Positions 25,712 through 32,667 of a stretch of 64,000 bases of DNA are shown piece by piece. Both the position numbers and the translations under genes were made by a program. The notes under the pieces are model-generated. The model ran no database searches and had not been told where the DNA came from. It saw nothing but the letters and a program-made list of their open reading frames with translations. The first letter of the stretch is position 1, and each line of letters opens with the position of its first letter. The stretch comes from Deefgea rivuli DSM 18356 (GTDB taxonomy: Bacteria > Pseudomonadota > Gammaproteobacteria > Burkholderiales > Chitinibacteraceae), in assembly GCF_000620145.1 (NCBI RefSeq), contig NZ_JHVM01000017.1:1-64000 (forward strand), given 5' to 3'.

Positions 25712-25745
25712 AAACAAAGGCGGCTAGATCGCCTTTGTTGTTTTT
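25712..25745 (+). terminator. Terminator downstream of yejK
   Basis: CAAAGGCG (25715-25722) / CGCCTTTG (25730-25737) then TTGTTTTT. Confidence 0.85.
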
Positions 25746-25747
25746 GT

Positions 25748-25811
25748 AGAACAATCGTTCTTTTTTGGCTTGTAAATTGAAGCGTCGTCTTGTATTGTGA
25801 ACGTACGTTCT
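25748..25811 (+). promoter_or_regulatory. SOS-type promoter with two GAAC-N4-GTTC boxes
   Basis: Box 1 GAACAATCGTTC at 25749-25760 and box 2 GAACGTACGTTC at 25799-25810 flank a promoter: TTGTAA (25770-25775), 17-bp spacer, TATTGT (25793-25798). Box 2 lies at the expected start site. Box 1 and its T-rich flank are identical over about 20 bases to the box in the recA promoter. Such palindromes are the DinR/LexA form known in Gram-positive bacteria; that LexA binds here is inference. Confidence 0.7.
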
Positions 25812-25827
25812 ACAAAGAGAAGCCATC

Positions 25828-26175
25828 ATGACGATTCGTTTTCGAGTATCAGACCAAGCGCTATTGCAACAACATACTTTGCAACTGCCAATCCGTTTGT
25901 TGGAGTGCTTAGTGCCAGCAACAGGTCGCGGAGCTGCGCGGTTGTTATCGTCGCGTGATGTACTGCGTTTTCCTGCTGAGCTACGTCAAATTGCCCAACG
26001 ATTTTTAGGTCTGTACGTGATTAGCGATGGCCAAGGTACAATCACCCACATCGGCAGAATGACGCATCGAATTGCGATTGCTGAGCAAGATGCACAATAT
26101 GGTGTTGTTGCTGAGGATGCTGCGCTACGTGCGGCGGATGATGTGGAAATTTTAGCTTTAGGTGGGGCGTACTAA
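25828..26175 (+). CDS. Unknown 115-aa protein, probably DNA-damage inducible
   Basis: 115 aa, ATG at 25828 preceded by AGAGAAG. I do not recognise a family. No signal peptide, membrane helix or metal motif. The first half contains short helices (ALLQQHTLQLPIRLLECLVPATGRGAARLLSSRDVLRF), and the second half has strand-like stretches (YVISDGQGTITHIGRMTHRIAIAEQ; YGVVAEDAALRAADDVEILAL). The twin recA-like boxes in the promoter are the main clue: the gene is probably under the same repressor as recA. It is monocistronic, with the cupredoxin gene 71 bases downstream behind its own RBS. Confidence 0.75.
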   Translation: MTIRFRVSDQALLQQHTLQLPIRLLECLVPATGRGAARLLSSRDVLRFPAELRQIAQRFLGLYVISDGQGTITHIGRMTHRIAIAEQDAQYGVVAEDAALRAADDVEILALGGAY

Positions 26176-31554: not shown

Positions 31555-32604
31555 TTACTCTGCGGCGCTATCGCCATCAGTGCTCTTTTCCATTTCAATC
31601 GGTAGTGCTGCACCGCTCATTTTCTCGCGTACTTTGCGGGCGATATCTTGAGCCACTTCAGGATTGTCTTTCAAATATTGGCGTGAATTTTCCAAGCCTT
31701 GCCCGATCTTATTACCGTTATAACTGTACCAAGCACCAGCTTTTTCAACAATCTTGTGTGTAACGCCTTGCTCAATGATTTCACCTTCGCGGGAAATACC
31801 TTCGCCGTACAAAATATCAAATGTGATCACACGGAACGGAGGTGCGACTTTATTTTTTGCCACTTTAACTTTGGTTTGATTGCCAATCACATCTTCGCCT
31901 TTTTTTACCGCGCCGATCCGGCGAATGTCGAGGCGAACTGAGGCATAAAATTTGAGTGCATTACCACCGGTAGTGGTTTCTGGGCTTTGCCCTGGCATCA
32001 TATTGCCAATTTTCATCCGCAATTGATTAATGAAAATCACTAAGGTATTGGTGCGTTTAATATTGCCTGTTAATTTGCGCAGTGCTTGACTCATTAAGCG
32101 GGCTTGCAAGCCGACATGCACATCGCCCATTTCGCCTTCGATTTCGGCTTTTGGCGTTAGTGCAGCCACAGAGTCGATCACGATAATATCGACGCCGCCA
32201 GAGCGGACCAACATATCGCAGATTTCTAGGCCTTGTTCACCAGTATCTGGCTGAGAAATCAGCATGTCTGAAACATTTACGCCGAGTTTTTGCGCGTAGA
32301 TTGGATCAAGTGCATTTTCTGCATCGATATAGGCAGCAACGCCACCGAGTTTTTGCACTTCAGCAACGACGTGCAAACACAGCGTGGTTTTACCTGAGGA
32401 TTCTGGCCCGAAAATCTCAACAATCCGCCCACGGGGTAGACCACCGACACCTAAGGCTAGATCTAAGCCGAGCGAGCCTGTCGAGACCACTTGCAGATCA
32501 TTTTCAATTTGGTTGTCGCCCATTTTCATGATGGCGCCTTTACCAAACTGGCGTTCGATTTGTGCTAATGCGGCGGCAAGCGCTTTGCTTTTATTATCGT
32601 CCAT
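31555..32604 (-). CDS. recA: Recombinase RecA
   Basis: 349 aa. Walker A GPESSGKT at 66-73, Walker [11 protein letters not shown], the [40 protein letters not shown] region (L2 loop and following strand), and the acidic C-terminal tail. Standard bacterial RecA, central to recombination and LexA cleavage. The promoter contains a GAAC-N4-GTTC palindrome inside the spacer between -35 and -10. Confidence 0.99.
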
Positions 32605-32639: not shown

Positions 32640-32667
32640 ATTATAGAACAATCGTTCTTTTTTGCAA
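32640..32667 (-). promoter_or_regulatory. recA promoter with GAAC-N4-GTTC operator
   Basis: Read on the minus strand: -35 TTGCAA (32662-32667), 16-bp spacer, -10 TATAAT (32640-32645). The spacer carries GAACGATTGTTC (32646-32657), which abuts the -10. A repressor bound here would block polymerase. The element is the same as box 1 at 25749-25760. Confidence 0.8.

What the first reader, a model, noticed from the sequence alone, without database searches (positions are those of the whole stretch)
25748..26175. Twin GAAC-N4-GTTC operators mark an unknown 115-aa gene as a probable SOS gene
Seen: two 12-bp palindromes flank a plausible promoter, one before the -35, one at the start site, and box 1 with its T-rich flank equals the recA operator. 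Known: GAAC-N4-GTTC is the LexA/DinR box of Gram-positive bacteria; most beta/gammaproteobacteria use CTGT-N8-ACAG. Inference: this lineage has an unusual LexA specificity, and the gene is a new damage-response protein of unrecognised family.
Basis: partly seen in the sequence, partly recalled or inferred. Interest (0 to 1): 0.82.

Follow-up and report, generated by a model that had tools for sequence, protein, structure and literature searches.

The report
Unnamed SOS gene with twin operators
A small gene of unknown function carries two strong binding sites for the bacterium's DNA-damage repressor LexA, and its relatives keep such a site, so it is very probably a damage-response gene that has no name yet.

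Summary
Two perfect GAAC-N4-GTTC palindromes, 50 bp apart, flank a promoter-like site before a 115-aa gene. The genome (genus Deefgea, from contig lengths) has a 195-aa S24 repressor with intact cleavage and catalytic residues, below the cut-off of the standard LexA model. Its own promoter carries the box, as do 30 of 30 family lexA loci examined. Exact boxes also precede recA, recG and an AlkZ-like glycosylase; one-mismatch boxes precede recN, dinB and, weakly, ruvA. A matrix built only from lexA promoters finds three sites in the 64-kb window: recA and these two.

Homologues occur in 27 of 43 family genomes; all 27 have a box just before the start codon, 18 have two or more. Pfam, PHROGs, NCBIfam, PDB and fold searches name no family. 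This motif and LexA type are not new (Sideroxydans, 2015, partly recalled); the gene family appears to be. All 11 short homologues end in histidine, 9 in Leu-His, like SulA's Lon degron, which suggests a short-lived checkpoint protein. But the 16 long homologues, the window's included, lack it, and 9 of the 11 short ones have one box only. Damage induction and function are untested.

The parts
25713..25739 (+). terminator-like hairpin that ends the upstream nucleoid-protein (NA37) gene and isolates the SOS promoter
   Evidence: 11 pairs, T-rich tail; upstream gene
25749..25760 (.). LexA operator, box 1 (GAACAATCGTTC), just upstream of the -35
   Evidence: matrix score 21.3
25770..25798 (+). 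promoter-like TTGTAA - 17 bp - TATTGT
   Evidence: read; recurs in relatives by eye; not called by the consensus scanner
25799..25810 (.). LexA operator, box 2 (GAACGTACGTTC, perfect palindrome), over the expected start site
   Evidence: matrix score 18.5; kept in homologues
25828..26175 (+). 115-aa gene, family without a name; core about residues 1-80, disordered tail
   Evidence: dN/dS 0.09-0.28 in the 11 of 12 homologue pairs with a finite value, three of them with saturated dS
31555..32604 (-). recA, SOS partner gene
   Evidence: TIGR02012, 541 bits
32646..32657 (.). recA LexA operator (GAACAATCGTTC)
   Evidence: matrix score 22.4

Best explanation
The 115-aa gene is a LexA-repressed SOS gene. 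In undamaged cells the lineage's noncanonical LexA (S24 repressor, 195 aa) sits on two operators that bracket the promoter, 50 bp or nearly five helical turns apart, and shuts it tightly. DNA damage activates RecA, LexA cuts itself at Ala81-Gly82, and the gene is transcribed from its own promoter. Shown by sequence: the operators, at least one of them in 27 of 27 homologues, the same operator at lexA, recA and recG and near-copies at recN, dinB and ruvA, and LexA's intact cleavage and catalytic residues. Inferred: binding, repression and induction (about 0.9). For the product I commit, at about 0.3, to a short-lived checkpoint-type inhibitor with SulA-like logic: repressed by LexA, made after damage, then cleared by a protease (Lon in the branch that ends in Leu-His), most likely pausing cell division. 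That last step is inference only.
For: Boxes present around a promoter-like site. lexA gene with a box in 30 of 30 family loci examined, of 43 found, and in 16 of 18 further order-wide lexA loci, one of which (L215) is from the family, so 15 of 17 outside it. A81, G82, S117 and K154 invariant in 30 of 30. Exact boxes at recA, recG, AlkZ-like, one-mismatch boxes at recN, dinB, ruvA. Relatives have imuA, umuD and SRAP genes next to boxes. Homologues in 27 of 43 family genomes, all 27 with at least one exact box; in 26 the nearest box starts 27-37 bp before the start codon and in one 16 bp before a TTG start; 18 of 27 have two or more boxes within 150 bp. Neighbouring genes differ between most genera. 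Purifying selection. All 11 short homologues in 4 genera end in H, 9 in LH, against 2.0% of 297 ORFs of over 250 aa ending in H and none in [LIV]H. A terminal-His motif is an autonomous Lon degron shared with SulA (PMC11986505, passages; E. coli SulA ends NLYH).
Against: No expression or binding data. The bare 12-mer is not enriched in the genome (25 against 64 control), nor are one-mismatch forms (29 per strand against 80 and 81); recN, dinB and ruvA are 3 of about 30 one-mismatch places (my count), most of the rest inside ORFs. ruvA's box scores 11.8, hardly above a site inside nusA (11.1), and a likely TetR operator scores 15.2. The window's own protein ends GGAY and none of the 16 long homologues ends in His, while 9 of the 11 short ones have a single near box, so no branch clearly combines both signs of tight control. 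No fold match with E at or below 0.001 and no link to SulA in Pfam or NCBIfam. 16 of 43 family genomes lack the gene. The one homologue outside the family (G159) has no GAAC box.
Confidence: 0.85

Rival explanations
1. Same LexA control, but the protein is a repair or replication accessory factor (for example a RecA, RecG or polymerase modulator) rather than an inhibitor.
For: The rest of the regulon is repair: recA, recN, ruvA, recG, dinB, AlkZ-like. Small soluble protein, no stretch hydrophobic enough for a membrane helix (highest 19-residue mean 1.58 among 27).
Against: No named family, so no known repair modulator, among library hits; the terminal His of the short branch suggests a protein that must be removed.
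Confidence: 0.33
2. Same LexA control, but the protein is a small RNase-fold (DUF4258/BECR-like) toxin-type effector that slows translation during damage.
For: Order of elements beta-alpha-alpha-beta ... beta-beta in two models, both from the same six sequences. The best local profile alignment with DUF4258 falls on the matching N-terminal helix pair. Two DUF4258 and one colicin-D-named phage protein appear among weak fold matches (E 1.4-1.9; 50 shown of 305 at E up to 10).
Against: Profile score 13.6 is beaten by 2 of 40 column shuffles, no DUF4258 hit in 24 members at E up to 1, and no confident fold match.
Confidence: 0.12
3. The boxes bind another regulator (for example a phage-type S24 repressor or a TetR protein), not LexA.
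For: A promoter between TetR-like and AcrA-like genes in this genome has a similar palindrome GAATGAACGTTCATTC, matrix score 15.2 (L238).
Against: LexA's own gene and classic SOS genes carry the same operator. G000 has a single match to this S24 repressor at E at or below 1e-10 and only one LexA_DNA_bind match, weak, which is the same protein.
Confidence: 0.04
4. Chance palindromes beside a gene that is not damage-regulated.
For: 3 exact matches in the window are reached by 5 of 100 shuffles; the 12-mer is not enriched genome-wide.
Against: Box kept in 27 of 27 homologues, and a matrix from unrelated promoters picks only these and recA in 64 kb.
Confidence: 0.01

Closest known systems
Noncanonical LexA regulon of Betaproteobacteria (Sideroxydans lithotrophicus; Sanchez-Alberola et al. 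2015, J Bacteriol 197:2622)
   Same: Recalled from its abstract, not read: motif GAACGaaCGTTC, a LexA unrelated to the standard betaproteobacterial one. Relatives of this window's LexA occur in 94 of 398 order genomes searched, 13 of them from the window's own family, and 15 of 17 best non-family loci carry the box.
   Different: Another family (Deefgea, Chitinibacter, Chitinilyticum); here the boxed genes include recG, an AlkZ-like glycosylase and the unnamed 115-aa gene. The paper is not held, so whether it covers these genera or genes is unknown to me.
Gram-positive LexA (DinR) Cheo box GAAC-N4-GTTC
   Same: Same core motif (PMC2248561, passage).
   Different: The repressor scores 19.6 bits against LexA_DNA_bind, under the cut-off of 23.7 (that loose search also rings in all 14 control genomes). 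I did not align it with a Gram-positive LexA.
SulA, the E. coli SOS division inhibitor degraded by Lon
   Same: Small soluble protein under LexA; terminal His as in the Lon degron in 11 of 27 homologues.
   Different: No SulA model hit in Pfam (24 homologues) or NCBIfam (2 homologues), shorter than SulA's 169 aa, the window's own copy lacks the terminal His, inhibition untested.
DUF4258 (BECR-type fold, as recalled)
   Same: Order of helices and strands is alike; weak alignment of the helix pair.
   Different: Not significant by profile or fold search.

Membership tests
SOS (LexA) regulon member | LexA operator at the promoter | tested here: met
   two boxes
SOS (LexA) regulon member | same operator at lexA, recA and other SOS genes of the genome | tested here: met
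   recN, dinB, ruvA only with one mismatch
SOS (LexA) regulon member | operator conserved in orthologues | tested here: met
   27 of 27 in the family; outlier G159 without box
SOS (LexA) regulon member | LexA binds and DNA damage induces | not testable with these tools
   needs gel shift and RT-qPCR
canonical LexA (TIGR00498) | score over curated cut-off | tested here: not met
   93.4 against 110.95 bits
LexA-type self-cleaving repressor | S24 domain, Ala-Gly site, Ser-Lys dyad | tested here: met
   S24 1.5e-21; A81 G82 S117 K154 in 30 of 30, placed by alignment to UmuD
SulA | sequence family match | tested here: not met
   no SulA model among hits
SulA | terminal-His Lon degron | tested here: inconclusive
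   11 of 27 homologues, not the window's protein
SulA | inhibits FtsZ | not testable with these tools
   no assay
DUF4258 | profile match | tested here: not met

The most novel reading that the evidence does not exclude
The family is a new kind of SOS checkpoint protein, unrelated to SulA, YneA or SidA, silenced by LexA (by twin operators in the long-tailed branch) and cleared by Lon (C-terminal Leu-His in the short branch) or another protease (disordered tail in the long branch), that halts division or another essential process in Chitinibacter-type bacteria.
Probability: 0.25. Interest if true: 0.65.

Novelty: new member of a known kind. Interest (0 to 1): 0.48.

Why it matters
It places a GAAC-N4-GTTC SOS circuit in a betaproteobacterial family and adds one strongly conserved SOS gene that no library searched here names. 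Checkpoint proteins are, to my knowledge, the part of the SOS response that differs most between lineages and is hardest to find by homology. A small gene with a LexA-silenced promoter, and in one branch a possible proteolysis tag, is a direct, cheap candidate to test.

Tried and rejected
Chance palindromes: rejected on conservation and matrix scan, although the bare 12-mer alone is weak evidence.

Other regulator: rejected, because lexA itself and classic SOS genes share the operator.

DUF4258/BECR fold: suggested by eye and by weak fold hits, not supported (profile score 13.6, 2 of 40 shuffles higher). The DUF4258 alignment used 27 of 29 rows drawn (two cut at contig ends were dropped), of 36 matches listed. 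Kept as a minor rival.

The best BFVD row has E 0.039; an unnamed 69-residue viral protein (A0A646QWN3) reaches a target TM-score of 0.62 at E 0.15 and was not followed up. Plasmid, phage and viral-contig searches for homologues found none. A profile search of 399 order genomes found 12 carriers, 11 in the family and one outlier.

Faulty scripts replaced: the ORF reading (replaced) and the parse of 18 lexA loci, which missed or misread 8 (replaced).

The recA, imuA, umuD and SRAP loci were fetched because they matched the box pattern. They show what lies beside boxes, not how often those genes have one.

Full report
The observation. Two perfect GAAC-N4-GTTC palindromes lie at 25749-25760 and 25799-25810, 50 bp apart, before the ATG at 25828. 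A third copy lies at 32646-32657, about 40 bp from the recA start codon (recA identity). Box 1 and the recA box share 21 identical bases including a T-run, but in opposite orientation to transcription. By eye, TTGTAA and TATTGT with 17 bp between them sit between the boxes, and box 2 starts at the next base. The consensus scanner does not call this promoter, yet the layout recurs in relatives by eye. A hairpin with a T-rich tail ends just before box 1, so the gene is probably its own transcription unit.

Chance. The bare 12-mer is weak evidence: 3 in the window, which 5 of 100 shuffles reach, and 25 in the 3.71-Mb genome against 64 for the reversed pattern. Most of those 25 lie inside ORFs, five of them in near-identical repeated copies. 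The extended operator GAACRWWYGTTCTAY is different: 257 matches in 43 family genomes against 3 for its control. A weight matrix built from 47 lexA-promoter boxes of 30 loci, none from this gene, scores only three sites at 8 or more in the window: recA, box 1 and box 2.

The regulator. The Pfam LexA DNA-binding model finds one weak match in the genome (19.6 bits, cut-off 23.7), 77 bp from a perfect box; weak matches of that model also occur in all 14 control genomes, so the identity rests on the rest of the protein. It is a 195-aa S24 protein that scores 93.4 bits over nearly the whole of TIGR00498 (lexA), below its cut-off of 110.95. A81-G82, S117 and K154 align with the UmuD cleavage site and catalytic pair and are invariant in 30 of 30 family proteins; the recognition-helix stretch ASKSAVSAL is invariant too. 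The gene is in 43 of 43 family genomes. Each of the 30 loci examined has a box within about 90 bp of its start. Order-wide, 94 of 398 genomes hold a relative at E at or below 1e-30, 13 of them from this family. Of 18 further loci fetched, 16 have a box; one of those 18, L215, is from the same family.

The regulon. In this genome exact boxes precede lexA, recA, recG, an AlkZ-like glycosylase gene (E. coli YcaQ, of the AlkZ type, unhooks interstrand crosslinks: PMC7367128, title and abstract start in a search listing) and the 115-aa gene, which alone among them has two. One-mismatch boxes precede recN, dinB and ruvA (names). These are 3 of about 30 one-mismatch places, which as a class are not enriched (29 per strand, exact ones included, against 80 and 81 for the control); I accept them because of the genes they precede. 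Matrix scores: lexA 25.1 (in the training set), recA 22.4, AlkZ-like 20.0, recG 19.5, dinB 17.6, recN 15.6, ruvA 11.8; a site inside nusA scores 11.1 and a likely TetR operator 15.2. In 39 box loci of nine relatives, chosen because they match the pattern, recA, imuA, umuD, SRAP, recG-like and AlkZ-like genes lie beside the box (some recognised by eye).

The gene family. Homologues occur in 27 of 43 family genomes, 8 of 11 genera. Every one of the 27 has at least one exact box close to its start: 26 with the nearest box 27-37 bp before the start codon, and one (L040) 16 bp before a TTG start. Two or more boxes within 150 bp occur in 18 of 27: all 16 long-tailed homologues and 2 of the 11 short ones. 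Named carriers are Deefgea salmonis, an uncultured Deefgea, Chitinibacter tainanensis and two Chitinilyticum species; equal contig lengths place the window's genus as Deefgea. Neighbours, compared in 24 of the 27 loci, differ between most genera: the NA37 gene is upstream in five Deefgea loci and, farther off, in one locus of genus g11; an ABC-ATPase gene (ABC-F by eye) is downstream in Deefgea and Chitinibacter loci and, on the other strand, in two Chitinilyticum loci. dN/dS is 0.09-0.28 in the 11 of 12 pairs with a finite value, with saturated dS in three. Outside the family one distant homologue was found in a 399-genome order search; it has no GAAC box. No family was named by Pfam and PHROGs (24 homologues each), NCBIfam (2 homologues) or PDB profile search; weak Pfam and PHROG rows (E 0.026 and above, one or two members each) are scattered and inconsistent.

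Structure. Two AlphaFold2 models from the same six sequences agree on beta-alpha-alpha-beta-alpha-alpha-beta-beta for about residues 6-78, with a low-confidence tail (pLDDT 68.9 and 71.0 overall). Foldseek found nothing at E 0.001 or better in BFVD (first model) or the PDB (both). A DUF4258-like reading was tested and is not significant.

Mechanism. Shown: operators, their conservation, the LexA with intact cleavage chemistry, and shared operators with classic SOS genes. Inferred: LexA binds both boxes, perhaps cooperatively as they are nearly five turns apart, and self-cleavage induces the gene. What the product does is open. Twin operators suggest that the protein must be kept off. The 11 short homologues (10 distinct tails), in four genera, all end in His, 9 of them in Leu-His, although the tail before it varies. 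Of 297 ORFs of over 250 aa in the fetched DNA 2.0% end in His and none in [LIV]His (related genes were not thinned beyond identical ends). A terminal x-L/I-L/I/V-H motif is an autonomous Lon degron shared with SulA (PMC11986505, passages); 4 of the 11 fit [LI][LIV]H strictly. This points to a protein made after damage and removed fast, the logic of SulA. Against it: the window's own copy and the other 15 long homologues lack the His, and 9 of the 11 short ones have one near box only, so the two signs of tight control mostly sit in different branches.

Novelty. The motif is the Gram-positive Cheo box (PMC2248561, passage). A noncanonical LexA motif in Betaproteobacteria is in print (title seen; details recalled; paper not held). 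One search for LexA or SOS with these genera matched 1,430 papers, of which I saw the 25 listed; none of those joins LexA with these genera. That proves little. The gene family is the part that appears new.

Noticed in passing
L015:1501-1512 (G000:C6:306486-306497): Orphan box GAACATACGTTC with a high lexA-matrix score (19.4) between two genes, with no named gene next to it; could mark a small unannotated SOS gene or RNA.
   Followed up: partly
L001:1501-1512 (G000:C1:380983): Exact box overlapping the start of a 170-aa ORF beside a GH19-domain gene: perhaps a prophage-type lysis cluster under LexA ('lysis' is my reading).
   Followed up: partly
L238:1357-1372: Overlapping palindrome GAATGAACGTTCATTC between a TetR-like and an AcrA-like gene (by eye): resembles the LexA box but is more likely a TetR operator.
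   Followed up: no
L166:1218-1409; L154:949-1341: In relatives, LexA-type boxes precede a Mu-like Com zinc-ribbon gene and a glyoxalase-family gene; similar glyoxalase-like genes beside boxes in L170 and L179 by eye.
   Followed up: partly
L080:1483-1764 (G159): One distant homologue of the 115-aa protein in another family, without a GAAC-N4-GTTC box; its regulation may have switched with the LexA type.
   Followed up: partly
L014:1501-1512: recG carries an exact LexA box that begins 18 bp before its start in this genome, and recG-like genes (by eye) have one in two relatives (L164, L169); recG is, as I recall, not a classic SOS gene in E. coli.
   Followed up: partly
L003, L010, L017, L020, L021: Five near-identical copies of a large repeated gene (VgrG-like by eye), four of them at contig ends, share GAACTGTTGTTC inside the ORF, inflating the genome count of the 12-mer.
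   Followed up: no
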